Virus record (IMG/VR): IMGVR_UViG_3300037225_000617
Location: 1-28,193 of that record
Source: a virus
DNA: 28,193 nt
Direction: 5' to 3' (one strand)
The notes below the pieces were generated by a model, which had not been told where the DNA came from, did not search any database, and saw nothing but the letters and a program-made list of their open reading frames with translations. The translations under genes were made by a program, and so were the position numbers. This document shows, piece by piece, positions 1-21,158 of the stretch; position 1 is the stretch's first letter, and each line of letters opens with the position of its first letter.

Positions 1-80
1 TATCCAAGAGCTTGCATCAGCTTAAACTGCATTAAAAGCTCTTCCGAATTTAGTGTACGAATTGGTATTTCTGATATCAT
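1..80 (-). CDS. Partial tail gene overlapping the tail chaperone-like gene
   Basis: Twenty-six codons are visible before the window ends, beginning MISEIPIRTLNSEELL. The ATG overlaps the TGA stop of the preceding gene as ATGA, in the -1 frame. No Shine-Dalgarno sequence precedes the ATG, so translation probably depends on coupling to the upstream gene or on a -1 frameshift that fuses the two products. The position directly after tail tube and chaperone-like gene is where phages commonly place the second, frameshift-made chaperone product or the tape measure. The visible part is too short to decide. The 3' end lies outside the window. Confidence 0.6.
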   Translation of the reverse strand, partial: MISEIPIRTLNSEELLMQFKLMQALG

Positions 81-802
81 TGTTTTTTAGGGCTAGTTAC
101 CAAAGGTTGCTTATTGTCTAAAATTACTTGTGTTTCTACAGCTTTAGCTACATCTTCCAGCTTACCTTGTTGCTGAGCCTTCATTTGTTCTACTAAGGCT
201 ACATGCTCATTACCTGCCGAGAAAGGAGCAAAGTGTGCATCAGAATCAGCAGATACCTCTTCCTTTGCTACTGGTGCTACAGGCGCTTTATCCGTTGTTG
301 TCTTCTTCAAACCCTCGGGTTTCGTTGCTTCCATCTTCTCAGATATTGCTGTCATAGCATCCATTACCTTCATAGTATTCTCTAGTTCCATTTCCTTATA
401 TCTCGCTTCCAATACCTGAACCATGATATCCGACATCTTACAAATCATAGTCCATAAAAGCCTTTTAGATTTTACGTCATTAGGATTGCTAAAATCAATG
501 TTATTAATTCTCTGTATGGATTTGAAAGCGATTAGCCTACGCATTACCCTAGACCTTAAAATAGGATCAGCAGCGTATTTGGTAGTTCTTTGCAGGATAT
601 CCAGATAATCGTCATCCCACAAAACAGCAAAGTAAACAGTATAAACTTTACCGTCTACGCCAGGAAAGTCATAAGGTTTAGATAATTGGCCAAAGTTAAC
701 CAATTGCAGAAGTTCGGATTCTTGAAGTGTTTTATTATCTTCTAAATCCAAATCAAAAAGAATATCAGTATTTACTTTAATCTCAGATTGTGTGCCCGCC
801 AT
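77..802 (-). CDS. Tail assembly chaperone-like protein
   Basis: The product is about 241 residues. The N-terminal 130 residues look globular. The rest is Lys/Glu/Ala-rich and partly helical, ending SPKKQ. The gene lies directly after the tail tube gene, where many myophages and siphophages encode the chaperone that coats the tape measure during tail assembly. The assignment rests mainly on this position and on the overlapping -1-frame gene at its end. I chose the ATG at 802 (MAGTQ) because AAAGGGG lies upstream of it. A TTG six codons earlier also lies in frame but is less likely. A six-A run followed by C sits just before the stop codon. It could equally be an unrelated virion protein. Confidence 0.5.
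   Translation of the reverse strand: MAGTQSEIKVNTDILFDLDLEDNKTLQESELLQLVNFGQLSKPYDFPGVDGKVYTVYFAVLWDDDYLDILQRTTKYAADPILRSRVMRRLIAFKSIQRINNIDFSNPNDVKSKRLLWTMICKMSDIMVQVLEARYKEMELENTMKVMDAMTAISEKMEATKPEGLKKTTTDKAPVAPVAKEEVSADSDAHFAPFSAGNEHVALVEQMKAQQQGKLEDVAKAVETQVILDNKQPLVTSPKKQ
82..89 (-). promoter_or_regulatory. Possible -1 frameshift slip site at chaperone gene end
   Basis: On the minus strand the bases read TAAAAAAC, with zero-frame codons AAA AAA CAA followed directly by TGA. The A6C run resembles known slippery sequences, but the phasing is not the classical X-XXY-YYZ heptamer, because the base before the run is T. A one-base backward slip on the second AAA would enter the frame of the overlapping downstream gene. 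No downstream pseudoknot was established. Confidence 0.3.
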
Positions 803-6122: not shown

Positions 6123-7559
6123 TTACGCTGCCTTTGCTATTTTCTCTCGTTCCCATCTTAACTTCTGCCCTTTACTCATTTTAGCACGAGTTTCTTCTGA
6201 AAGTTTATCTTCTCCTCTTTCTTTTCTCAACCGCCAAGCTTCCTTAATATTTTTTCGACCCTCTTCAGACATCGTTCTATCTTTTTTATTCTGCCATCTT
6301 AACCGCAAAACCCTACTCATATTTTGTCTTATCTCTTCTGATCTTTTTTTACCTGTAAGCTTTTCTGATAATAATTTTTTAGTTTCTTCCTTGTGCTTCT
6401 TTCCAAAAAACCCGTTTTTCTCCCCTTTATTTCCAGCACTGATTTTTGCTTTAGTTTCCTCTGAAAGAGGAACTCCTATTCTAGGAGATTTCCAACCATT
6501 CTTTCTTCTTAATTCCCATTGTTTTTTAGCTGCTATGGAAGCCTGCTCTCTTTGTTGTTGTGAAATAATTTTACCTTTATTTGCAATAGATATTTTTTGT
6601 CGTTGCTCTTGAGAAATAATTTTACCTTTATTTCCAGCACTAATTTTTGCTTTAGTTTCTTCCGAACAAGGTATTCCCGGACGTTTCCTTCTAGCTTCCG
6701 ACATTTTTCTTTTGGTCTCTTCGGTATGTTTAAAACCTCTTTTAGACAAAATCATTTTTTGAATAATCTCTTTAGAAAGATGCTTTCCAAACAAAGGATG
6801 ATCTGCACCTCTTCTAGGATTTGAATGCTCTCTTATTTTTCTTTTATGTTCTTCAGAAAGCTTTTTTCCATAATTAGGATTATTTGGTCCTGAATTCGCT
6901 ATGGATAGCTTACGTCTTGTTTCTTCACTCTTAATTCTTCCTTTAGCGTCTATACCTAATTGACGTACCTGAGCCATTCGAGAAGGACTATTTAAAATAG
7001 ATTTCCTAATTTTTTCTATAGTCTCTAATGAAGGATGTTTTCCGAAAAGAGGGTGGGCACTGCCTCGCAGAGGTTTAGCGTTTTCTCTAATCTTTCTTTT
7101 AGCTTCTTCTGAATGTTTTTTACCTTTCATTCCAGAGGGTTTTCCTTTACGTGCTTCTATTCTTAACCGAATAGTCTCTAAAGACTGTTTTTTACCAAAC
7201 ATAGGATTACCAATACCTTTACGACTATTAGATAAATTTTGTTTCCATTCTTCTGTATGTGGCTTACCAAACATAGGATGCCCAGGGCCAGGTAAAAACC
7301 CCTCTCCTCCAATAGCAATATTATAACCAATTTTAGGGTCTCTAGCATTAAGAAAGAGTATCCAATACTGTTCTCGTTCCGCCCAATTATCTTTAGTACA
7401 TATTTCTAAAGTTTCTCTTTTAAAATTTTCTAATTTATACTTTTTAATTGCCCGTTTTATCCAAAGACCTGATCCTAGATACCCCTTCCTATTACCACTA
7501 TATTTTCCAACATATATCTTACCATTTACTAAATTAGTTGTTTTATAAATAATAAGCAT
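6123..7559 (-). CDS. GIY-YIG homing endonuclease with long NUMOD3 array
   Basis: A 478-residue protein. The N-terminal 90 residues form a GIY-YIG nuclease domain: IIYKTTNLVNGKIYVGK carries the degenerate GIY and YVG elements, and EREQYWI supplies the conserved catalytic Glu. The rest is a chain of about 16 NUMOD3-like DNA-binding units, with repeated cores such as HPMFGK, HPLFGK and SEETKAKIS. Free-standing phage enzymes of this family cut DNA in phages lacking the gene and spread by repair. The array is longer than I expect for the family. The gene fits between neighbours with single-base gaps at both ends (TAA-G-ATG and TAA-T-ATG). It is visibly AT-richer than its neighbours, as expected for transfer. 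Its N-terminus is strongly similar to that of the protein at 9945-11084. Confidence 0.92.
   Translation of the reverse strand: MLIIYKTTNLVNGKIYVGKYSGNRKGYLGSGLWIKRAIKKYKLENFKRETLEICTKDNWAEREQYWILFLNARDPKIGYNIAIGGEGFLPGPGHPMFGKPHTEEWKQNLSNSRKGIGNPMFGKKQSLETIRLRIEARKGKPSGMKGKKHSEEAKRKIRENAKPLRGSAHPLFGKHPSLETIEKIRKSILNSPSRMAQVRQLGIDAKGRIKSEETRRKLSIANSGPNNPNYGKKLSEEHKRKIREHSNPRRGADHPLFGKHLSKEIIQKMILSKRGFKHTEETKRKMSEARRKRPGIPCSEETKAKISAGNKGKIISQEQRQKISIANKGKIISQQQREQASIAAKKQWELRRKNGWKSPRIGVPLSEETKAKISAGNKGEKNGFFGKKHKEETKKLLSEKLTGKKRSEEIRQNMSRVLRLRWQNKKDRTMSEEGRKNIKEAWRLRKERGEDKLSEETRAKMSKGQKLRWEREKIAKAA
6562..6633 (-). repeat. 51-base direct repeat inside NUMOD3 array
   Basis: An exact 21-base match at 6562-6582 and 6613-6633 (plus strand GAAATAATTTTACCTTTATT plus one T) marks adjacent units of 17 residues, GKIISQEQRQKIS and GKIISQQQREQAS. 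It is a recent internal duplication of coding repeats, not a CRISPR or intergenic element. Confidence 0.85.
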
Positions 7560-8190: not shown

Positions 8191-8293
8191 TAATTACCTC
8201 CATTAAAGCACTTTCTACTACCTTAACCAAGTCCTCTAATTCTCCTCCTAAGCCTACTTCTATTTCTACACCTTCTTTATCTGCTATAATTAT
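8183..8293 (-). other. Possible 36-residue frame without standard start
   Basis: An open frame fills the 99-base gap between the genes at 8290-9945 and 7561-8190 and overlaps both. It reads IIIADKEGVEIEVG and continues to ALMEVING before TAA at 8183. The only start candidates are ATA or ATT, eight or more bases after AGAGG. The acidic, amphipathic product looks protein-like. No ATG, GTG or TTG start precedes most of it, so it may be a remnant or a chance frame. The stretch otherwise holds only the ribosome-binding site of the downstream gene. Confidence 0.2.
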
Positions 8294-9945
8294 TTTAGAT
8301 ACCTCTTCTCTAACTTATCAAACATCGAAGGCGTCACTACCTTAGTATCGTAAATGTCTTTAGCCAGTACTTCATAATCCCCGCCCTCTAACTTATATTC
8401 CTTAAGCCTGAGGGTCTTAAACTCACGAGATATCGGATATTTGGTAATCAAACCATTAGTCGTCTTAATAAATTCTAAAGTAGCTTCTGCTTCTCCCTTA
8501 AGCTTTAAATTGTAAGCTACCACCGAATAAAGGTATTCATTTATATCCTTATCTTCGTAAGCTTTGTAAGGCTTAATCCATTCCTTATTCTTTATAATAG
8601 CATAAACGGGAGTCTTCAATTCCTCTGAAGTGTATTCTATACCTTCAGGTAAATCCTCTGAAAGCGGTACATCCAAACCCATGCCTTTAATCCTATCTAC
8701 CTCAGCTTGGAAGAAAACACCATGCGCTCCCCCAAAGTCGTATCCTGCTCTCTCTTGTAGGAGTTTTACGTGTATAAGCTCGTGAGCCATAATTTTTTCA
8801 AATAACGAGGAGTCCATCCGATATTTACCACTAATCACTAACTCAGTTACCTCAGCTTTATCCCCCAACCGCGTCGCCTTAACCTTACCCAAATCCCTAG
8901 CAATATTCCCGTAACGCATCTCAAAACCTAAATCAAGCTTCCCCTCAAAATACTTGTCGTTAAGCTCTCTAGCCGTAGCTTGGATATCGTAAGAATTAAC
9001 AGAAGCCGACGCTATCTTAACAGCCGTACCCCCCTTCTCATTTACTTCACGTAAAAAAGCCCCTAACTCTACCTTATTATGAATCGACTGCCCCTCCAAG
9101 AAATCATCTGCAAAATCTATAAAAACAATAAAACCTTCCTCCAACTTCTCTTTAATAAATGGTATAGCTACATCAATACCCTCTACCGTCGCAGTCATAT
9201 TAAGCCATGTACCCATAGCATACCACCGAACATACCCCATTCGATACGCCTCCATTAAAGCCCCACTATGCGAGCTATCCGACGCGTCTACATCTTTATC
9301 CTCCTTCGGATTTCTACCTAAAATAGTTTCCGCCGTATACCAAGAATGAGATACCCCTAAAGGCAAATTAATTATCTCCCCATCAGGAGCAATAAAACCC
9401 CGATCCTTATCTATAGCCGACGCCTCCGAAAGCAAGGCCGACGTAATTGAATGAACATCCTCCATCAAATTAGTAGAAGAGGAAGAAGCCGACGCTTCTC
9501 TATCATCCAAAGCTTCCTTGATTATTTCAAAATTACCCTCAGAACCAGATATCTTAGTATCCTGCACTAACTGAAAAGGAACACCCTCTACCTTAACTAC
9601 CGTCCCTTCTTCCAAAGTATCCTTATCTCCCCAATTCCCTTCCTTTATCTCAAGCAAAGCCGTCTCCAACTTATCCAAATCATCATACTCTTTGTAAGGT
9701 ACTCCGATTTTTTCCAAAAGTTCTTTTTCAAGAGCCGTCTGTTCTCCCCCTAAATAGAACACTATATAGTCCGCCTTAAGCATTTCCGCTATCTCTTCAT
9801 AGATATCCTTTACTGGGTCGTAATCCGCTTTTACTGGATTATAAAAAGTGAGATCAGTAAACTTAGCGATAATAGGAGTACGCCAATCAGGTTTAACCGA
9901 ACCACCTAAGAAGACGGTAGGTTTGGTACTTTTATCGTTAGGCAT
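8290..9945 (-). CDS. Deoxyribosyltransferase-like and SprT-like peptidase fusion
   Basis: A 551-residue protein in three parts. Residues about 8-95 resemble the nucleoside 2-deoxyribosyltransferase-like fold: VFLGGSV, DWR at 20-22, FYNP, then ADYIVFYL. Residues about 155-280 form a middle domain with RGFIAPDGEIINL and a later GYVRWYAMG, a layout I associate with phage proteins without a known role. Residues about 320-430 look like a SprT-like zinc peptidase: HELIH at 388-392 and a candidate third ligand at His408 (GGAHGVFF). The C-terminal 120 residues are unassigned. The ATG overlaps the upstream endonuclease stop codon (TAATG), and GAGG of its ribosome-binding site lies inside that endonuclease gene. 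Substrates and true activity are unknown. The deoxyribosyltransferase part could be only a binding fold. Confidence 0.75.
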   Translation of the reverse strand: MPNDKSTKPTVFLGGSVKPDWRTPIIAKFTDLTFYNPVKADYDPVKDIYEEIAEMLKADYIVFYLGGEQTALEKELLEKIGVPYKEYDDLDKLETALLEIKEGNWGDKDTLEEGTVVKVEGVPFQLVQDTKISGSEGNFEIIKEALDDREASASSSSTNLMEDVHSITSALLSEASAIDKDRGFIAPDGEIINLPLGVSHSWYTAETILGRNPKEDKDVDASDSSHSGALMEAYRMGYVRWYAMGTWLNMTATVEGIDVAIPFIKEKLEEGFIVFIDFADDFLEGQSIHNKVELGAFLREVNEKGGTAVKIASASVNSYDIQATARELNDKYFEGKLDLGFEMRYGNIARDLGKVKATRLGDKAEVTELVISGKYRMDSSLFEKIMAHELIHVKLLQERAGYDFGGAHGVFFQAEVDRIKGMGLDVPLSEDLPEGIEYTSEELKTPVYAIIKNKEWIKPYKAYEDKDINEYLYSVVAYNLKLKGEAEATLEFIKTTNGLITKYPISREFKTLRLKEYKLEGGDYEVLAKDIYDTKVVTPSMFDKLEKRYLK

Positions 9946-11084
9946 TAGGCTACCTCTGATAAAAGCACACTAAAATATTCAGGAGAGTCTATTTGAAGCT
10001 CTTCCTGATTCTCTTTATTTTCTTGCTGACGCTTATTTTCATAATATCTCTTAAGACCTTCAGATACCCTTTTTCTTTGCTCTTCAGTTTTTTTAACTCC
10101 CTTTACCCTAGCACGAAGTTTTTCTACCCACTCCTCAGACATCTTTCTGCCTTTCAATTTAGCAGATATTTTAGCCTTAGTCTCCTCAGCCATGGGCTTT
10201 CCATATTGATAGCACTGCGGGCCAGTTCTTGGTATCGTCCTTTTATCTATTTTTGGCTTTAATATATCAATATCATAGTTTGGATTTTCTTCTAAATGCT
10301 TTTTATGCCAATATTCTCTTTTAGCTTCTGCAATTTTTTGTTTGTGCTCCTCCGAAAAAGACTTTCCTTTTCTTGCTTCTGACATTTTTCTACGAGCCTC
10401 GTCAGAAGCATGTTTTCCCATATTTATTTCAGATAAATGCTTTTTAACTTCCTCAGACCTAACTTTACCTGTATTAGCTCTAGAAATTTTAGCTTTTCGC
10501 TCTTCTGAAGCAGGTATCCCAAAATTAGGAGATAATTCCCCACTCTTTCCATACATAGGATTGTTCTCGCCAGACATTGCTTCAGATATCTTTTCCTTTG
10601 ACACTTCTGACATCTTTTTACCTTTTTGTGCATCAGATATCCTTTTTCTAGTCTCTTCAGAAAGATTCTCTACTTTATGTGCATCAGAAATTTTAGCCTT
10701 AGTTTCATCAGAATGAACCCTACCAAAAAAGGGATTTCCTTCTCCTGACATCATTTCTGATTGCTGTTTTAATCTTTCTGGAGAAGGATGCTTTCCAAAC
10801 ATAGGATTGTCTGGCCCTGTGCCCCCGCCATCTCCGCCAACGTTTATATTGTAACCTATTTTCTTATTTCTAGCATCTAACTCTTTTATCCAGTACTGTT
10901 CCCTTTCGTTAATATTTTCTTTAGTACAAACCTCTAAAATTTCTTTCTTAAAATTCTCTTTTCCGTATTTAGTAATAGCATACTTCAATAACTTTCCTGA
11001 GCCCAAATAACTTTTCACGTTAAGGGCATCTTTTCCAACATAAAACTTTCCGTTAATAAGATTTGTCGTTTTGTAAATTATCAT
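9945..11084 (-). CDS. GIY-YIG homing endonuclease with NUMOD3 repeats
   Basis: A 379-residue paralogue of the protein at 6123-7559. The nuclease domain (about residues 1-90) shows IIYKTTNLINGKFYVGK, YLGSGK and the catalytic-Glu segment EREQYWI, followed by IGYNINVGGDG. About ten NUMOD3-like units follow, for example NPMFGKHPS, NPFFGRVHS and SEETKAKISDA, then a Gln/Glu/Asn-rich tail. NUMOD3 modules contact DNA and set the cut site. The ribosome-binding site upstream is weak (GAGAATTAG). The last codons overlap the start of the downstream peptidase fusion gene by one base and supply its ribosome-binding site. Like its paralogue it is visibly AT-richer than the structural genes. The two endonucleases bracket two non-structural genes. 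Confidence 0.92.
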   Translation of the reverse strand: MIIYKTTNLINGKFYVGKDALNVKSYLGSGKLLKYAITKYGKENFKKEILEVCTKENINEREQYWIKELDARNKKIGYNINVGGDGGGTGPDNPMFGKHPSPERLKQQSEMMSGEGNPFFGRVHSDETKAKISDAHKVENLSEETRKRISDAQKGKKMSEVSKEKISEAMSGENNPMYGKSGELSPNFGIPASEERKAKISRANTGKVRSEEVKKHLSEINMGKHASDEARRKMSEARKGKSFSEEHKQKIAEAKREYWHKKHLEENPNYDIDILKPKIDKRTIPRTGPQCYQYGKPMAEETKAKISAKLKGRKMSEEWVEKLRARVKGVKKTEEQRKRVSEGLKRYYENKRQQENKENQEELQIDSPEYFSVLLSEVA

Positions 11085-14464: not shown

Positions 14465-15124
14465 TTATATATTAGTATTGCTCGTCAGGCCAACTACCTT
14501 TAACAGAGCAGTTTTGTTTTCGGGGGTAAGGCTTACATCAGCACCGGGTAACTTCTTGAACAATTCATCAAATACTGCTACCTTCTTATCATTATCCAAA
14601 GCTTCTCCGCCAGCTTGTTCCAAACGATATTGGAATTCGGAAGCAAACTCTTTGTTATCAGCAAATATGCCGATATCCACTAAACAAGTTTCACCAGAAA
14701 TAGTGGCTACGCCATCCTTAACACTAACATCCTTTTGCCCACTAAGCATAGATAAAGCCGTACCTTGTGCCGTCTGCTCCATCTCTTTATACTCTTCAAC
14801 TGCTTCTAACCCTACAGTAGCTGAAGAATCGTCTCTAACTGAGTAAAGGAAGGTAGAACTAGGCGGCGCAGGAATCTCACCACTTGGGTTTTTGTTAGTC
14901 TCTATCGCAGAAGCGACTAATATCTTAGCCACTTCTTTATCAACTGATCCTAATATCATGTCAGGAACTCTTGTATTCTCTACTTTAAGCGGATCATTTA
15001 TCTCACGAGAAACTGGCTGTCTACCAAATAGCTTTTCAAATTTAGCTTTCATCGCTTCTCTAACCACACCAGCATACAGGTAAGCGGTATCTGCGTTTGG
15101 CTTCTCCGAATATACTGTAAACAT
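14465..15124 (-). CDS. Hypothetical head-module protein
   Basis: A 219-residue protein beginning MFTVYSEKPNADTAY. I chose the ATG at 15124 because AAGAGGTAAGC lies directly upstream. A longer frame reaching 15163 would start inside a terminator and lacks such a site. The N-terminal third is helical (VREAMKAKFEKLFG) and the centre has an acidic helix (GLEAVEEYKEMEQTAQG). The rest is mixed, ending TSNTNI. No family is recognised. It follows a terminator, so it either starts a new transcript or depends on read-through. The next gene begins 14 bases after its stop codon. Confidence 0.7.
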   Translation of the reverse strand: MFTVYSEKPNADTAYLYAGVVREAMKAKFEKLFGRQPVSREINDPLKVENTRVPDMILGSVDKEVAKILVASAIETNKNPSGEIPAPPSSTFLYSVRDDSSATVGLEAVEEYKEMEQTAQGTALSMLSGQKDVSVKDGVATISGETCLVDIGIFADNKEFASEFQYRLEQAGGEALDNDKKVAVFDELFKKLPGADVSLTPENKTALLKVVGLTSNTNI

Positions 15125-15137
15125 GCTTACCTCTTTA

Positions 15138-15170
15138 TTAAAAAGGGGCGAGTGGTATCCCACCCACCCC
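15138..15170 (-). terminator. Rho-independent terminator after 222-residue gene
   Basis: On the minus strand the arms GGGGTGGGTGG and CCACTCGCCCC form an 11-bp stem with two G-U pairs and a GATA loop, followed by TTTTT. It lies 25 bases after the stop codon of the gene at 15195-15863 and just upstream of the next gene's ribosome-binding site. Confidence 0.85.
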
Positions 15171-15194
15171 TATGGTTTTCAATTTACTTACTAA

Positions 15195-15863
15195 TTATGC
15201 GTTAGACTGTACCCTCTTCAAGCCCTGGCCTCCCAGAGTTTTCTGCCTCAACTTCTGTTCACGCTTGGATTCCTTGAGTTCCATCTCTTCATAACGCAAA
15301 TCGAAGTCGTTAGGCCTATCATCCACTCTCAACGTCCCTGGTGCGTAAACCGCCTTCTTCGGAGGTATGAAATTCATACCTTCGTCTTCTGAGCGCAAAC
15401 TCACCAAAGCCTTCTGTCCTGCGATACCTGGGATATTCATAGAAGCGCTTCTTAAACCACGGCTTCTATTAATTTCCATCGGTGTATAAAAATCCGTTAA
15501 AGTCACTACTTCCCCAGGATTAAGAGACAATCCCCTGTCGTCTGGGTTGTTTCCATCTCTTAAATCAGGAAAGACCAGAATACTGTCTGACCTATTCTGG
15601 ACTATTTTGTATCGGGGTTCTACTTGCGCTCCTACTGGATCAGCAAGCTTGGCGTTAGGATTGCCCTCGCCAGTATCCCGCTCCGATAACTCTTTCTGGC
15701 TACGCGCCTCTTCTTGCTGACGCGAAGCTAAATCTGCTTTTTTCAAAACTTTGGCCTTCGGCGTAGAATCTACGTTAAGGTCAACATCCAGGCCATTTCC
15801 GCCCTGGTTAGCGGTCTGAAGAGCTACTTCCGCTATCGCGTTTTTGCTCTGTGAATTCTGCAT
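15195..15863 (-). CDS. Capsid-proximal protein flanked by terminators
   Basis: A 222-residue protein of unknown function. Residues 1-80 are polar and probably disordered (QSKNAIAEVALQTANQGG, Lys/Arg/Glu-rich middle). Residues about 82-170 look like a compact beta domain (YKIVQNRSDSILVFPDL, LSLNPGEVVTLTDFYTPMEI). The end is a basic charged helix (EMELKESKREQKLRQKTLGG). The gene follows the capsid gene and lies between two strong terminators, suggesting its own transcript level. The ribosome-binding site AAGGAGGTAATGAA is strong and sits inside a small hairpin. A minor capsid, cement or assembly protein is plausible by location, but I see no specific motif. Confidence 0.7.
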   Translation of the reverse strand: MQNSQSKNAIAEVALQTANQGGNGLDVDLNVDSTPKAKVLKKADLASRQQEEARSQKELSERDTGEGNPNAKLADPVGAQVEPRYKIVQNRSDSILVFPDLRDGNNPDDRGLSLNPGEVVTLTDFYTPMEINRSRGLRSASMNIPGIAGQKALVSLRSEDEGMNFIPPKKAVYAPGTLRVDDRPNDFDLRYEEMELKESKREQKLRQKTLGGQGLKRVQSNA

Positions 15864-15868
15864 TTCAT

Positions 15869-15883
15869 TACCTCCTTAAGGTA
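15869..15883 (-). promoter_or_regulatory. Hairpin over ribosome-binding site of 222-residue gene
   Basis: On the minus strand TACCT-TAAGG-AGGTA forms a perfect 5-bp stem in which most of the Shine-Dalgarno sequence AAGGAGGT is in the loop and the 3' arm. It could lower or tune initiation. Similar small hairpins occur at the capsid and decoration-like genes. Confidence 0.4.
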
Positions 15884-15900
15884 TTTTGCAGTTTATTAGT

Positions 15901-15933
15901 TAAAAGAAATCTGGCGGGTTTTACCCCGCCAGA
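15901..15933 (-). terminator. Rho-independent terminator after major capsid gene
   Basis: On the minus strand TCTGGCGGG pairs perfectly with CCCGCCAGA around a GTAAAA loop and is followed by TTTCTTTT. It lies about 33 bases after the capsid stop codon. A strong terminator here fits a high-level capsid transcript that is mostly ended before the next gene. Confidence 0.9.
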
Positions 15934-15965
15934 CTCTCGGTTGTATCGCGCTACTAAGCACAAAC

Positions 15966-16862
15966 TTAGTTCGTGCTGTCGAAGGTGCCCTTCGCCACGG
16001 CCTTGCCGTTATGGACGGTCATCGCCAGATACTCGTAACCTACGAAGCCCAGCAAGAGCTGGTCAGGTAAGTCAGCGGGGATCACGTCTACGTCACGACG
16101 AATAGGAGTCCAAGCGGTGAACTCGGGTTCGCTGATGATGTAAAAGGTTCCAGCGGTCACCTGGTCGTTGACATAAATGTCAGCGTCCCAGATGCTACCA
16201 AGATAACCAGACTTGCGAATTTCTTCACGAGCCACGTTATCAATAGTAGTATAGTCCCAACGTCTGATGCCCTGCATTCCAAAGGGGCTCATCAGAATGC
16301 TCTTCACACGCAAACGCCATCTTTCGACCTGGCTAAACGCCTTAGCAAGCGCGTCTTTGGTCAGGTAGGTGGTGATGGTGATTGTGGTGTTGACCTGCTG
16401 AGAAGCGGTTTCCAGCAAGCTGAAGCCATAAAGGTCTTCCCGCAGAGCCATACCCTGTTCGAGACGTTCCTTCACACGCTTCATGACCTGATAGAGGCGC
16501 TTGTACAGTTCGGAATATGGCACTTTCGGACGTACCACTATTTCGAAAGGTTCCAGCTCGGTGCGTTCCACTTCGACTTCGATAAGGCGAGTCGTACCAT
16601 TGTAGCCGATTTTAACGGCGGTAAACTCTTCAATATCGTTATCGTAAATGACAGGCATCCCGTCCGGCCAGCCTTCAGTCACGCTGAACTTACGGTAGAT
16701 ACCGATATAGTCCAGATATTTACGAACAGGAGACGCTAGGTTGGCCGCAATTTTGTGCAGGCCAGTAGGAGACTTCATTGCAGACTGCAAATCAGCTTCC
16801 TTCCTCAGCATCGCCGCTTTCGTTGCTTCTCTTTTCAGAGACGCGGTTTTTGGTTGTAGCAT
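15966..16862 (-). CDS. Major capsid protein (HK97-fold type)
   Basis: A 298-residue protein that would form the icosahedral shell. Residues 1-45 are a basic, Ala-rich arm, possibly removed by the prohead protease. Residues about 47-80 (RKYLDYIGIYRKFSVTEGWP, then a short acidic stretch) and 95-115 (EVEVERTELEPFEIVV) fit the extended loop region. Residues about 116-155 form the long spine helix, and the remainder (SILMSPFGMQGIRRWDY, IWDADIYVND, AGTFYIISEPEF, LLLGFVGYEYLAMTV) matches the axial domain of HK97-type capsid proteins as I know them. The upstream protease, scaffold and decoration-like genes support this. GGAGGTTTATAC gives a strong start at 16862. The gene is visibly GC-richer than the TnpB-like gene before it and is followed by a terminator. 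Confidence 0.88.
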   Translation of the reverse strand: MLQPKTASLKREATKAAMLRKEADLQSAMKSPTGLHKIAANLASPVRKYLDYIGIYRKFSVTEGWPDGMPVIYDNDIEEFTAVKIGYNGTTRLIEVEVERTELEPFEIVVRPKVPYSELYKRLYQVMKRVKERLEQGMALREDLYGFSLLETASQQVNTTITITTYLTKDALAKAFSQVERWRLRVKSILMSPFGMQGIRRWDYTTIDNVAREEIRKSGYLGSIWDADIYVNDQVTAGTFYIISEPEFTAWTPIRRDVDVIPADLPDQLLLGFVGYEYLAMTVHNGKAVAKGTFDSTN

Positions 16863-16867
16863 GTATA

Positions 16868-16882
16868 AACCTCCAATAGGTT
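16868..16882 (-). promoter_or_regulatory. Hairpin over capsid gene ribosome-binding site
   Basis: On the minus strand AACCT-ATTGG-AGGTT forms a 5-bp stem whose loop and 3' arm contain the GGAGG ribosome-binding sequence of the major capsid gene. It may moderate translation. Its existence in the RNA is inferred from base pairing only. Confidence 0.4.
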
Positions 16883-16894
16883 AGTTGTTGTTGT

Positions 16895-16931
16895 TGGCTA
16901 ATCTTACCTGAATATCAGAAATAAGATGCCA
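16895..16931 (-). repeat. Imperfect hairpin after TnpB-like gene
   Basis: On the minus strand the paired segments are TGGC with GCCA, ATCTTA with TAAGAT, and CTGA with TCAG, separated by small bulges and a TAT loop. That is 14 base pairs over 37 bases. The position about 55 bases beyond the gene's stop codon fits a right-end hairpin or the scaffold part of a guide RNA for the TnpB-like protein. It has no U-run, so it does not look like a terminator. Confidence 0.5.
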
Positions 16932-16985
16932 GTTTATTTTTAATTTTAATTTAAGTTGTAACATTTTTTCATCAGTTAAGAGTAT

Positions 16986-18326
16986 TTACCTTAGCTGTGT
17001 AACATATTTAAAATCAGCTAAGGGTAAATCCCCTTTAGAAACTCTTTCAATTCCTTCGCCAAAAAGATTACCTTCTTGACACGAATCCGACTGATTATAG
17101 GGTTCGATTACCTTTTCATCTTCCAATGAAACTAATGCCTTATGCCCATTATTTGTGGGTACCAGACAAGACGCTGTGAGCGTAGGCTGTTTTTGGCAAA
17201 TCCTAAATTTAGATTTAAGCCAAAGAAATGATTTTCTTTTCAAAGCAACAGACTCAGATCGTGCTTCAAGCGTCACCAAATCTTTTAACTCTGAAATACT
17301 CACCACTACTTTATCTTTTATTCCTAAACCCATACGGCCAATAATCATTGCCGCCGCAGTATGAATAGAAATAGAATACATAGTCATATATTTTAACTTA
17401 CCAACAATACTAGTATAAGCTGCTGGAACTTCTATAACTTCAACACCAAATCTATGCGCCCTAGATTTAATAGCATTTAGCATACGACGCCAAGCAAAAT
17501 TATTTGCCATTCTATTAAATTTTTTTGATTTTTTCTTTTTACCAAAATTCAATTTTTCTACAACAATAGGCTTTTTATAAAGCAAAGCAAAATCAACAAC
17601 TTTTTTAGCTATTTCGTAAATAGAATTTGTCCTTTTTTCTTTTTTAGAAAACTGAATTGAGGAATCTCTAATGTAAATATGCTTTAAAAGATTTCCAGAA
17701 AAGTCTAAGTTTACTAAAGCAACACCATCAGGATTACTATCAACACCAATCGCCCCTTTTTTTATATCTGTAATTATTTTAGAGGCATACTTATAAGAAA
17801 CTATTACCTTAAAAGTATCGCCCCTAGCTTCGAGCCTAACATCATAACAATTAGAAGGAAAAGATTCTTGCAACCACAATTTTCCAACTATCCAAACACC
17901 ATATTTTGAGGGATCATTAATATAAATTCTATTTCCAATTATTCTAATATTAGGATTCCCCCCACGAAAAGCACTACTATCTCCGCGAGAATATAGCTGA
18001 CTATTTCTAATAAAATTCCATTTCTTTTTAGATATTTTTCCAGAAGCAAACTCTTTCCATACTCTTTTACCACCAAATACAGCATTATCTCTAATTACTT
18101 TTTTTGCCTCAAATACTGCATCTGAAACATATCTTTGATTAAGCATCTCCATATAATTTTTCTTACAATACTTTCTAACATCATTTCCAACTAAAGCATG
18201 CTTATGCATAGCTTGATATGCGGACCTTTTACAAGAACAAAAGGCCTTCATAAGGGAGTGTATCCTTTTTCTATCTATTTCTGAAAAAGAAGCGACCCCG
18301 TGTATTGCTTTTCTAATAGTTTCCAT
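16986..18326 (-). CDS. TnpB-related RuvC-like protein
   Basis: A 446-residue protein with a basic helical N-terminal region (residues about 15-110), a beta-rich segment (125-188) and a RuvC-like core. Asp196 lies in IGVDSNPDG (first motif) and Glu257 in IVVEKLNFGKKK (second motif). The third motif region, AAYTSIVGKLKY followed by SISIHTAAAMIIGRMGLG, has His322 where usual TnpB proteins have Asp. The CxxC zinc finger normally found here is absent. As I recall, this is the pattern of the TnpB-related branch of IS200/IS605 proteins. TnpB proteins are RNA-guided DNA nucleases; whether this branch cuts DNA is not clear from sequence. No ribosome-binding site precedes the ATG. The gene is AT-rich and separates two capsid genes. 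Confidence 0.85.
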   Translation of the reverse strand: METIRKAIHGVASFSEIDRKRIHSLMKAFCSCKRSAYQAMHKHALVGNDVRKYCKKNYMEMLNQRYVSDAVFEAKKVIRDNAVFGGKRVWKEFASGKISKKKWNFIRNSQLYSRGDSSAFRGGNPNIRIIGNRIYINDPSKYGVWIVGKLWLQESFPSNCYDVRLEARGDTFKVIVSYKYASKIITDIKKGAIGVDSNPDGVALVNLDFSGNLLKHIYIRDSSIQFSKKEKRTNSIYEIAKKVVDFALLYKKPIVVEKLNFGKKKKSKKFNRMANNFAWRRMLNAIKSRAHRFGVEVIEVPAAYTSIVGKLKYMTMYSISIHTAAAMIIGRMGLGIKDKVVVSISELKDLVTLEARSESVALKRKSFLWLKSKFRICQKQPTLTASCLVPTNNGHKALVSLEDEKVIEPYNQSDSCQEGNLFGEGIERVSKGDLPLADFKYVTQLR

Positions 18327-18339
18327 AATTGTTTTAATA

Positions 18340-18368
18340 GTATGGCAGAGGAATTAACTCCGCCACAC
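18340..18368 (-). repeat. Hairpin upstream of TnpB-like gene
   Basis: On the minus strand GTGTGGCGGAG pairs with CTCTGCCATAC around a TTAATTC loop: 11 pairs, two of them G-U. It lies about 20 bases after the decoration-like gene and ends 14 bases before the TnpB-like ATG. The following bases (TATTAAAAC) are not a U-run. It may be a left-end hairpin of the element or a decoration-gene terminator whose U-run was displaced by the insertion. Confidence 0.5.
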
Positions 18369-18388
18369 TAAATGTTTACTTTCCGAAC

Positions 18389-18859
18389 TTAGAACATCTG
18401 CACGGTCAAGCTGGTAGTTACACCACCAGAAACCGTTCCAACAGCCAGCACTACGCCACGAATGGTGTTGGAGCCGTAGCTGTTTGACCACTGACCAGCG
18501 GCGGTCGTCAAACCGATACCGATAGCATTACCGATAGCGTAGGTCGCCGTTGAATCATATGGATAAGACGCTTCCACAGGATTGGTAGCAGACTTTTCCA
18601 ACGTATAGATGCCTGGGCCGAAGTAGTAGGTAACGGGGTTACCAGACTGATCACCCTTGAGTCCATGAGTATCCGTGCTACCATTAGCATAGATACCGAT
18701 GTAGCCAGAGGCACCGTTGTCGGAGTAGCAACGAGCTACTGCACCAGCGGAGTTGATACGCGCAGGAGCGCCACCCGGATAACCGCTCTGATGGGCGGTA
18801 ATATCGCCGTCAAGCGCACCGTATTTCAGCACGAAAAGTTTTACTCTATCTAGAGCCAT
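18389..18859 (-). CDS. Decoration-like capsid protein
   Basis: A 156-residue Gly/Ser/Thr/Ala-rich protein (MALDRVKLFVLKYGALDGD...) with almost no charged residues after residue 20. It appears all-beta (SGYIGIYANGSTDTHG, VTYYFGPGIYTLEK, GVVLAVGTVSGGVTTSLTV). Size, composition and position between scaffold and capsid genes fit a capsid decoration or cement protein that binds the outside of the shell. The end (TVSGGVTTSLTVQMF) resembles that of phage decoration or head-fibre proteins in style, without a definite family. The start at 18859 has AGGAGGATTTATT, within a small hairpin. A scaffold gene ends 43 bases upstream. Confidence 0.6.
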   Translation of the reverse strand: MALDRVKLFVLKYGALDGDITAHQSGYPGGAPARINSAGAVARCYSDNGASGYIGIYANGSTDTHGLKGDQSGNPVTYYFGPGIYTLEKSATNPVEASYPYDSTATYAIGNAIGIGLTTAAGQWSNSYGSNTIRGVVLAVGTVSGGVTTSLTVQMF

Positions 18860-18862
18860 AAT

Positions 18863-18882
18863 AAATCCTCCTTATAGGATTT
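18863..18882 (-). promoter_or_regulatory. Hairpin over decoration-gene ribosome-binding site
   Basis: On the minus strand AAATCC pairs with GGATTT around TATAAGGA, enclosing the AAGGAGGA ribosome-binding sequence of the decoration-like gene. It is similar in design to the hairpins before the capsid and 222-residue genes. Confidence 0.4.
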
Positions 18883-18902
18883 TAAGTTAGTAATAGGTTC
18901 AA

Positions 18903-21158
18903 TTAGTTGTCGTCAAAGAAAGTTCCGTTTTCAAGAGAGCCAGACGCTTCTGAACCTTCTGAGGCGTCTACCAACACTTGACCACGATTCGTCATCGAAG
19001 CCTGTACTTTACGAATTGGGCGTTCTGCTATGGAAGCCGTAGTTACCTGCGACTCCATATTAGCGATCAGCCGTTCGAAAGCATTAAACTCCGCTGGCGA
19101 GTTAGTATGCAGTTCAGCCAATACCGTCATCTGCTCTTCGCTCTGGGCTTCGGATATTGCACCTACTTTGAGAGCGCGAGCCACTAAATCCTTTGCTTTA
19201 AACTTCGCCAATTCTCCCGCCATCTTCTTATTATGACCTGAAAGAATCTGTATCTTCTGAGCATAAATACTGAGCTGAGGATTAACTTTCTCTTCGCCAG
19301 TAGTTGAGCTATAGCCCTTACTATTCTGATCAAGACCCTTCAGCTTAGAAGAAATGCTTTCTGAGGAATCTGGAGCCTTGGTAGTAGCAGAATCTACTGG
19401 AGAATCCTTAGTAGTCGTAGTAGCCACTACTTTGGAAGCTTTAGCTACCGACATCGAAGGATTGACCTTTTCTTCTTTAGCAGTAGTGCCGTAGTCTTTA
19501 CCAGACTGATCCAGACCCTTAAGCTTAGAAGAGATGTTTTCGTTAGCATCTGGTTCCTTATCACTTTCGCTCTGATAAGTGTAGATGCTCTTTCTCACGA
19601 ACTTCGCACCTACTTTACCAATAAAAGCCTTGGCCGCTTCTTCGGTGTCAAATTCCTTAGTCTCGTTATTTACAGTAGTAACCGTAAACTTACCAGATTC
19701 AGGATTGACGCCAATCAGATTGGTTTCTGACTTAACGGTTACGTCGCCTGAGTTAGGAGCCAGCTTTTCCTTAGTCTCTTTAGGAGCATCTGGGGAAGTA
19801 GCAGGCGCTACGTCAGCTACCTTCTTGCCACCATTACGCATGATGGAGACTGCTTCCTTAACCTTATCAGCTAAAGAACCAGCCTTAGAAACTACGTCGG
19901 ATTTCTCTTTCTGCGTTCCGCCTTTATCCACTACATCCGACTTCACTTCTTCTTTAAACACTGGTATTGCGGTTTCCGCACCCATGCGCTTGATAGTGCT
20001 GGCCAGATATTCCTTCTCTACGCCACCGATAGTAACCATTACCTTATCACCATTAATGGAAGCTACGGCTCCTACCGAGCCATCAGGAAGCACTACTTTA
20101 TCGTTAGCCTTTACCTCAATAGAAGCCTGAATGCTGGCTTTCTTCTTAGCTAAATAAGCTTTAAAAGCCTGACGACGAGCGGCCATCTTGTCTTCAGCTT
20201 TTGGAAGTTCATGTTCCTTCTTTTCTTCGGCGGGAGTTTCCTTGGCTTCGTGAGCAGGAGTCTCTTTGGCTTCCTGAGCAGGAGTTTCTTTACCTGGCTC
20301 AACAGCCTTCAAATCCTTTACCACTTCTTTAGCAACTTCCTTACCCAAGTCCTTGCCAATTTCCTTCACTTCTTTGGCTACTTCAGGAGCTAGCTTATCC
20401 GAGGTCTTTTTAGAAGCTTCGGCTTTAGCAGGTTCCTTGGCTTCGAGCTTAGGCGCTTCTTTAGTAGGCGACACTACTTCTTTCTCAATAGCTTTCGCTA
20501 CTTCGTTCCCGATTTCCTTAGCAACTTCCTTAATATTGTCAGCGATCTCAGGAACTAGCTTGTCAGCCATCTTCTCGAAAAGAATAGCTTTCCTCTCAAT
20601 CATCGCCTTTTTCTTGGTATCCTTTTCCTTGCCAGCCAGCTCATGAAGCTTGATAGCCTGAGTAATCAAGGAATTAGCTCTTACCTTCTTAGAAGATTCC
20701 GTAACTTTCTGAGCGGGGGCCGCTGGAGCCTGTTCTGGCTCTTTAATCTGTGCATCTGATTCATGACCCTTCTCAAGCTGTTCCAAACGAGGACTAGCCG
20801 CCGTCAGCTCTTTCTGTAAATCGGCCATGTTATTTAGCGCAGTAATTCCTTTATCCAGCTTAGCTTTAGTAGCTTGAAGTTCGGAAATCTTAGCACGAAC
20901 TGAAGCCAACTCTTTCTTTCCCGCGTCTTCAGTCAAAAGCCCTTCTTTAGCAGATTTGAAAATAGCGACACGCTGTTGTATCGCTTTGCTCAAAGCCTGT
21001 GTATTAGCTTCTATTTTTGAAGCAAAGCTAAGCTTCGTCGCGTCAATAACCGAACCAATGCTCTTGGTTTCGTTCGCAGAAAGTTTCTTTCCCGCTTGTT
21101 TTACAGTAGCCATTACACGGCTAGCAGTTTCTAAATCAGCCAGTAGATTATGAAGCAT
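18903..21158 (-). CDS. Prohead core/scaffold-like protein
   Basis: A 751-residue protein rich in Lys, Glu and Ala. Residues 1-130 are helical or coiled-coil. Residues about 199-229 and 254-284 are related amphipathic helices (LVPEIADNIKEVAKEIG and LAPEVAKEVKEIGKDLG). Residues 290-313 are three KETPAxEA units. Residues about 347-392 resemble a small SH3/KOW-like barrel (NDKVVLPDGSVGAV). Residues 535-571 and 595-631 are a duplicated segment (ISSKLKGLDQ ... EEKVNP). The helical C-terminal part (about 632-705) recalls phage scaffold domains. The gene lies between the protease and capsid genes, where scaffold proteins that shape the procapsid and are then degraded are normally encoded. AAGGAGTAGAAAC supports the start at 21158. 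Scaffold is inferred from context, and the large size is unusual. Confidence 0.65.
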   Translation of the reverse strand: MLHNLLADLETASRVMATVKQAGKKLSANETKSIGSVIDATKLSFASKIEANTQALSKAIQQRVAIFKSAKEGLLTEDAGKKELASVRAKISELQATKAKLDKGITALNNMADLQKELTAASPRLEQLEKGHESDAQIKEPEQAPAAPAQKVTESSKKVRANSLITQAIKLHELAGKEKDTKKKAMIERKAILFEKMADKLVPEIADNIKEVAKEIGNEVAKAIEKEVVSPTKEAPKLEAKEPAKAEASKKTSDKLAPEVAKEVKEIGKDLGKEVAKEVVKDLKAVEPGKETPAQEAKETPAHEAKETPAEEKKEHELPKAEDKMAARRQAFKAYLAKKKASIQASIEVKANDKVVLPDGSVGAVASINGDKVMVTIGGVEKEYLASTIKRMGAETAIPVFKEEVKSDVVDKGGTQKEKSDVVSKAGSLADKVKEAVSIMRNGGKKVADVAPATSPDAPKETKEKLAPNSGDVTVKSETNLIGVNPESGKFTVTTVNNETKEFDTEEAAKAFIGKVGAKFVRKSIYTYQSESDKEPDANENISSKLKGLDQSGKDYGTTAKEEKVNPSMSVAKASKVVATTTTKDSPVDSATTKAPDSSESISSKLKGLDQNSKGYSSTTGEEKVNPQLSIYAQKIQILSGHNKKMAGELAKFKAKDLVARALKVGAISEAQSEEQMTVLAELHTNSPAEFNAFERLIANMESQVTTASIAERPIRKVQASMTNRGQVLVDASEGSEASGSLENGTFFDDN
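19266..19376 (-). repeat. Duplicated scaffold segment, second copy
   Basis: This encodes residues 595-631 of the scaffold-like protein, which match residues 535-571 (19446-19556) with a 180-base offset. Shared cores are ISSKLKGLDQ and EEKVNP. It is an in-frame internal duplication. Confidence 0.8.
19446..19556 (-). repeat. Duplicated scaffold segment, first copy
   Basis: This encodes residues 535-571 of the scaffold-like protein, ENISSKLKGLDQSGKDYGTT and on to EEKVNPSMSV. It is the partner of the copy at 19266-19376. Confidence 0.8.
20220..20291 (-). repeat. Three 24-base tandem repeats in scaffold gene
   Basis: Three consecutive in-frame 24-base units encode KETPAQEA, KETPAHEA and KETPAEEK, probably a flexible charged linker. 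Copy-number changes here would keep the frame. Confidence 0.85.

What the first reader, a model, noticed from the sequence alone, without database searches (positions are those of the whole stretch)
16986..18326. TnpB-related gene with altered third RuvC motif splits the capsid genes
Asp196 and Glu257 are in place, but the third motif region has His322 in SIHTAAAMIIGR where active TnpB has Asp, and the zinc-finger segment is absent. The gene sits between two highly expressed head genes without its own ribosome-binding site. TnpB relatives have become RNA-guided repressors when their nuclease decays, so this protein could be a nuclease variant, a dead repressor, or a homing-type cutter targeting the capsid locus of competitors.
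Basis: partly seen in the sequence, partly recalled or inferred. Interest (0 to 1): 0.65.

Follow-up and report, generated by a model that had tools for sequence, protein, structure and literature searches.

The report
Orphan TnpB-like gene beside phage capsid
A giant-phage relative carries, between two head genes, a stand-alone member of a zinc-finger-less branch of the RNA-guided TnpB nucleases; the "missing" catalytic aspartate is a histidine that this branch has kept for a long time, including in complete transposons, so it looks like an inherited active-site variant and not recent decay.

Summary
The ORF at 16986-18326 (minus strand, 446 aa) is TnpB-related, has Asp196, Glu257 and His322, lacks the zinc finger and has no Shine-Dalgarno. 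It separates a phage-G-type major capsid gene from the gene in the decoration-protein position. Fifty related records have that pair 11-51 nt apart, so the gene is an insertion. The decay reading is not supported. In 100 relatives residue 322 is Asp or His apart from one Asn (13 His to 11 Asp among 60%-identity clusters), with two changes on the tree, and every relative lacks the zinc finger. Eight His-type relatives sit behind an IS607 transposase, and two His-type copies in one viral contig form a mobile element under purifying selection. The predicted fold matches Cas12f, ISDra2 TnpB and Thermus RuvC; the alignment ends imply that His322 matches RuvC His143, a natural Asp-to-His change in an active nuclease. 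Best reading: an orphan, IS607-derived, RNA-guided nuclease acting as a homing-type parasite of the head locus, with a guide RNA overlapping its 3' end. Activity, guide and target are not shown. Rivals: an RNA-guided binder that does not cut, or a stranded relic.

The parts
16986..18326 (-). TnpB-related gene, 446 aa, zinc-finger-less branch
   Evidence: fold match to Cas12f and ISDra2 TnpB
17739..17741 (-). codon of Asp196 (RuvC-I, GVDxN)
   Evidence: no other residue in clusters with data
17556..17558 (-). codon of Glu257 (RuvC-II)
   Evidence: Glu in 22 of 23 clusters, Asp in one
17361..17363 (-). codon of His322 (RuvC-III position), Asp or His in relatives
   Evidence: first residues of the last RNase H helix 321-333
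17169..17183 (-). ACGCTCACAGCGTCT hairpin, identical in L029; candidate guide-RNA element
16954..17133 (-). structured 3' end, candidate guide-RNA scaffold overlapping the C-terminal codons
   Evidence: fold z -2.93, no shuffle of 200 as good; by analogy with relatives
16978..17035 (-). long stem-loop spanning the stop codon; candidate end of scaffold
   Evidence: position of the true end not established
18338..18370 (-). strong 13-bp stem-loop between the decoration-position gene and tnpB; origin unknown
   Evidence: z -4.88
15966..16862 (-). major capsid protein gene (phage G gp27-like), flank of the insertion
18389..18859 (-). gene in the capsid-decoration position, flank of the insertion
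   Evidence: gene order and weak alignment to L119; no family hit

Best explanation
The gene is an orphan, IS607-derived TnpB relative of a zinc-finger-less branch whose third catalytic residue is Asp or His. The evidence shows that it is inserted between two head genes that are adjacent in related phages, that it has the Cas12f/TnpB fold, and that its D-E-H constellation is inherited and maintained. I infer that the protein binds a guide RNA made from the 3' end of its own transcript and cuts, perhaps with a preference for manganese, the empty head locus of co-infecting related phages. Repair from the carrying copy would then spread the gene, as a homing endonuclease does. It has no transposase of its own in the window.
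For: Position 322 is Asp or His in 100 relatives apart from one Asn; Asp196 and Glu257 are kept; two changes on the tree. IS607 TnpA directly upstream of 8 His-type and 14 Asp-type relatives. His-type pair L021/L023: abrupt ends and different flanks, purifying selection on the protein. Model matches Cas12f (Z 17.8), ISDra2 TnpB (Z 14.8) and T. thermophilus RuvC (Z 13.9; 190..337 on 1..158). T. thermophilus RuvC His143 and D. radiodurans RuvC His139 are natural Asp-to-His changes in active enzymes, the latter preferring Mn2+ (PMC3834835, PMC9601230). Head genes are 11-51 nt apart in 50 relatives. Guide-RNA-like 3' ends in relatives and a structured 3' end here with a 15-nt element shared with L029. 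Other endonuclease-type mobile genes in the same window and at the same place in L013.
Against: No biochemical data for any His-type member that I found. His in E. coli RuvC (D138H) nearly abolishes activity (PMC9601230). No empty-site relative close enough to read the ends, the guide or the target. One copy of the gene, so selection on it cannot be measured. The RNA fold score is moderate. The alignment of His322 to RuvC His143 is inferred from range ends.
Confidence: 0.55

Rival explanations
1. RNA-guided DNA binder without cutting: the His-type site is too weak to cut and the protein represses a gene, in the manner of TldR, perhaps in the host or in a competing phage.
For: The literal D-E-D triad is absent; E. 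coli RuvC D138H is nearly dead (PMC9601230); phage-encoded TldR repressors exist (PMC13418256); Cas12k is among the structural matches.
Against: His is the family state in complete IS607 elements and in a mobile two-copy element, not a loss in this lineage. Asp196 and Glu257 are intact. The gene sits as an insertion between head genes with no companion regulatory gene.
Confidence: 0.2
2. Stranded relic: an IS607-type element that landed between the head genes, lost its transposase and transposon ends, and is tolerated without a function for the phage or for itself.
For: No TnpA in the window; no Shine-Dalgarno; single copy; the nearest relative L029 is also an orphan with what reads as a decayed tnpA upstream.
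Against: The ORF is intact over 446 codons with the family's invariant residues, in a phage genome where idle DNA is lost quickly; endonuclease-type genes recur at this place and in this window.
Confidence: 0.2
3. Effector of a CRISPR-like phage system, as was suggested for the TnpB genes of the Lalka Thermus phages.
For: Lalka phages carry a member of this family next to short 29-bp repeat arrays (PMC11437467).
Against: Only 123 nt separate it from the capsid gene. Lalka members are Asp-type and distant.
Confidence: 0.03

Closest known systems
IS200/IS605 accessory 'TnpB-related' proteins (TIGR01766), GVDxN zinc-less branch in Thermus, Aquificota and thermophilic Clostridia; IS607-borne forms in Peptoclostridium, Pseudomonas, Photobacterium
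   Same: Same fold region, D-E-(D/H), no zinc finger, 23-33% identity; many behind an IS607 transposase
   Different: The window copy has no transposase, is at the short end in length (446 aa) and sits between phage head genes
TnpB-family genes of Thermus phages phiLo and Lalka
   Same: Same family, in phages; in Lalka27a within 0.5 kb of the capsid gene
   Different: Asp-type (KD motif); the Lalka copies lie next to short repeat arrays
IS607 TnpB with RAGATH-18-derived guide RNA (ISFba1, PMC11061315)
   Same: IS607 origin, RuvC fold match (Z 12.6), guide RNA at the 3' end
   Different: Canonical D194-E290-D371; no Rfam match in sixteen loci of the window's branch
TldR, nuclease-dead TnpB repressors of phages (PMC13418256)
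   Same: Phage-borne TnpB homologue without a literal D-E-D
   Different: In TldR the loss is lineage-specific and linked to non-transposon genes; here His is shared with transposon-borne relatives
T. thermophilus and D. radiodurans RuvC
   Same: Same RNase H fold; natural His at what appears to be the same position; active
   Different: Holliday-junction resolvases, not RNA-guided; they keep a further Asp that is Ala325 here
Free-standing phage homing endonucleases (GIY-YIG, HNH)
   Same: Single gene inserted between conserved phage genes; such genes also occur in this window
   Different: Protein-guided recognition, unrelated folds

Membership tests
TnpB-related (TIGR01766 / COG0675 group) | Family model above curated cut-off | tested here: met
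   50.2 bits, cut-off 32
TnpB-related (TIGR01766 / COG0675 group) | TnpB/Cas12 fold | tested here: met
   Cas12f Z 17.8, ISDra2 TnpB Z 14.8
Canonical RNA-guided TnpB (NF040570) | Family model above curated cut-off | tested here: not met
   70.6 bits, cut-off 100
Canonical RNA-guided TnpB (NF040570) | D-E-D catalytic triad | tested here: not met
   D196, E257, H322
Canonical RNA-guided TnpB (NF040570) | Zinc finger between RuvC-II and RuvC-III | tested here: not met
   Absent here and in all 100 aligned relatives
Canonical RNA-guided TnpB (NF040570) | Guide RNA at the 3' end | tested here: inconclusive
   Structured 3' end and shared 15-nt element; no RNA data
IS607-type element | Serine recombinase TnpA next to tnpB | tested here: not met
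   None in the window; present in 22 relatives
TldR | Catalytic residue lost relative to transposon-borne relatives | tested here: not met
   His is shared with IS607-borne relatives
TldR | RNA-guided repression without cutting | not testable with these tools
   needs biochemistry
Homing endonuclease gene | Inserted at a site that is empty in relatives | tested here: met
   Head genes 11-51 nt apart in 50 related records; shown by gene order, not to the base
Homing endonuclease gene | Cuts the empty allele and is copied into it | not testable with these tools
   needs co-infection or in vitro cutting

The most novel reading that the evidence does not exclude
A zinc-finger-less, D-E-H branch of TnpB is a working RNA-guided nuclease with altered metal use, and phages have taken it up as an RNA-guided homing endonuclease that drives itself into the capsid locus of competitors.
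Probability: 0.4. Interest if true: 0.7.

Novelty: new variant of a known kind. Interest (0 to 1): 0.42.

Why it matters
It turns a suspected dead enzyme into a testable active-site variant: a branch of TnpB in which Asp and His alternate at the third catalytic position, paralleling Thermus and Deinococcus RuvC. That would warn against calling nuclease death from a missing Asp alone, which is part of how dead TnpB homologues are recognised. It would also add RNA-guided enzymes to the phage homing endonucleases that sit among capsid genes.

Tried and rejected
Single-protein scan of viral contigs: no relatives. Profile A2 was too loose for the genome scan; A3 worked. Rfam: nothing relevant in the window or in sixteen related loci. 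A sequence search of solved structures with P0001 alone gave only chance hits. Alternative acidic residue for RuvC-III: the only near-invariant acidic position nearby is 338 (Asp in P0001, Glu in most), 16 residues on and past the last RNase H helix, so I do not take it as a replacement; position 325, where RuvC has its fourth acid, is Ala. The decoration-position protein found no relatives by sequence in the phage or viral collections, so its identity rests on position. The motif ACGCTCACAGCGTCT in two other viral contigs is unrelated. L169-L176, where the capsid match stopped half-way: an intron was considered; in L169, the one read, the capsid frame is open and only has an inserted loop. 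Relatives fetched from annotated plasmid and phage records could not be used for the fold, so the fold alignment A6 holds only scan-derived loci and the window. Guide and target were not searched for, as no close empty site is available and the end of the element is not fixed. A wider sampling around L029 gave one weak further match. The main classification paper of TnpB (PMC10691335) is not held, so I cannot say whether this branch is described there. A nucleotide search of phages with 15000-19500 found nothing.

Full report
What is there. The minus-strand ORF 16986..18326 encodes 446 aa. It scores 50.2 bits against TIGR01766 'TnpB-related' (cut-off 32) but only 70.6 against guided_TnpB (cut-off 100), and 16.2 against the TNB zinc-ribbon model (cut-off 26.3). 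No zinc finger is present, and the 62-nt leader has no Shine-Dalgarno. GC is 31% in the gene body and 51-52% in both neighbours.

Where it sits. The downstream gene 15966-16862 is an HK97-fold capsid protein, closest among named phages to Bacillus phage G gp27 (36.5% identity). The upstream gene 18389-18859 has no family hit but is where phage G has gp26, annotated as capsid decoration. In 50 related records, several of them near-duplicates, the equivalent pair is 11-51 nt apart. Here the pair is split by 1.5 kb, so the gene is an insertion. In the closest capsid relative, L013 (88% identical), the DNA just upstream of the capsid gene also carries foreign genes: a 255-aa ORF that looks HNH-like by eye (no Pfam hit) and, at the contig edge, what reads as the C-terminal end of a canonical TnpB (read directly). 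Another canonical tnpB lies further on in L013 (PF01385, PF07282). Two GIY-YIG/NUMOD3 endonuclease genes lie elsewhere in the window. The head region therefore seems to attract endonuclease-type mobile genes.

Is the His decay? Relatives came from Thermus phages and plasmids, viral contigs and 80 genome loci; the genome pattern did not include position 322. In 100 aligned members position 322 is Asp or His apart from one Asn; after clustering at 60% identity it is His in 13 and Asp in 11. Asp196 is the residue of all 23 clusters with data, Glu257 is Glu in 22 of 23, and no member has the zinc finger; two single members read Asn at 196 in the pairwise table. The His state lies deep in the tree, with two changes in all when the motif's own columns are left out (a quick tree, deep branches unsure). 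Asp-type members nearly all read Lys-Asp; His-type members mostly read Ile/Val-His. His-type members have an IS607 serine recombinase gene directly upstream in 8 loci, Asp-type in 14. The nearest relative, L029, is His-type and has what I read as a decayed IS607 tnpA remnant upstream (SARLYGKRG, read directly). L021 and L023 are two His-type copies in one viral contig: 88.8% identical over 2.0 kb with abrupt ends and unrelated flanks, with third-codon changes commoner than first and second ones all along the gene. This is a mobile element whose protein is under purifying selection. The decay idea therefore fails at family level, although activity remains untested.

Structure. The AlphaFold2 model is confident for most of residues 11-350 and poor for 353-446 and 129-155. 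It matches Cas12f (Z 17.8), Cas12k, ISDra2 TnpB (Z 14.8) and T. thermophilus RuvC (Z 13.9; residues 190..337 on 1..158). If the end of that last alignment is ungapped, His322 falls on RuvC His143; only range ends are reported, so this is an inference. In Thermus and Deinococcus RuvC that residue is naturally His; the enzymes are active, and D. radiodurans RuvC prefers Mn2+ (PMC3834835, PMC9601230). The same change made in E. coli RuvC, Asp138 to His, nearly abolished activity (PMC9601230), so His is compatible with catalysis but is no proof of it.

Guide RNA. In three sets of multicopy Asp-type relatives, DNA conservation stays very high through the C-terminal codons and, in two sets, well past the stop codon, and then drops abruptly. 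There third codon positions are about as conserved as first and second ones, unlike in the RuvC part. That is the usual sign of a guide RNA overlapping the gene's 3' end with the guide lying outside the element. The His-type pair shows 93-97% identity in its last 120 nt and an end about 73 nt after the stop. In the window the 3' end folds better than 200 shuffles (z -2.9), and the 15-nt hairpin ACGCTCACAGCGTCT is identical in L029, whose protein is only 33% identical. The tail of the protein is low-confidence in the model, as expected if the DNA there serves mainly as RNA. The exact end of the element and the guide could not be read, because no close relative with an empty site is available.

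How it most likely works. Shown: inserted gene, TnpB-type fold (predicted), conserved D-E-(H/D) branch, mobile ancestry of the branch. Inferred: the protein binds RNA from its own 3' end, cuts matching DNA, and is copied into the empty head locus of co-infecting relatives by repair, as homing endonucleases are. The rivals are an RNA-guided binder without cutting (0.2), a stranded relic (0.2), and a CRISPR-like effector such as was proposed for the Lalka phages (0.03).

Novelty. TnpB genes in phages, TnpB relatives of this branch, and a member within 0.5 kb of a phage capsid gene (Lalka27a; PMC11437467) are known. I found no paper in the library that describes the Asp/His alternation or the missing zinc finger of this branch, but the main classification paper was not held. 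I rate it a new variant of a known kind, of moderate interest.

Noticed in passing
window 6123-7559 and 9945-11084 (-): Two GIY-YIG endonuclease genes with 11 and 9 NUMOD3 repeats, inserted among structural genes and lower in GC than their surroundings.
   Followed up: partly
L013 1-948 and 5584-6767: The closest capsid relative has an HNH-like ORF and the tail of a canonical tnpB directly upstream of the capsid gene, and a second canonical tnpB 4 kb on; the head region looks like a hot spot for endonuclease genes.
   Followed up: partly
L003 6015-6104 (Thermus phage Lalka27a): An Asp-type member of the same family lies next to an annotated CRISPR-like repeat and within 0.5 kb of the capsid gene.
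   Followed up: partly
window 18338-18370 (-): A 13-bp perfect stem-loop between the decoration-position gene and tnpB (z -4.9) with a poor T tail; whether it is a terminator or part of the insert is open.
   Followed up: no
window 8290-9945 (-): One ORF combines weak matches to a nucleoside deoxyribosyltransferase-like domain and a SprT-like protease domain.
   Followed up: no
Asp-type multicopy elements such as L036, L044, L085 (3' ends): Highly conserved RNA-like 3' regions ending at ACCAGG or GCCTC followed by variable sequence; no Rfam family matches them, so they may be undescribed guide-RNA scaffolds.
   Followed up: partly
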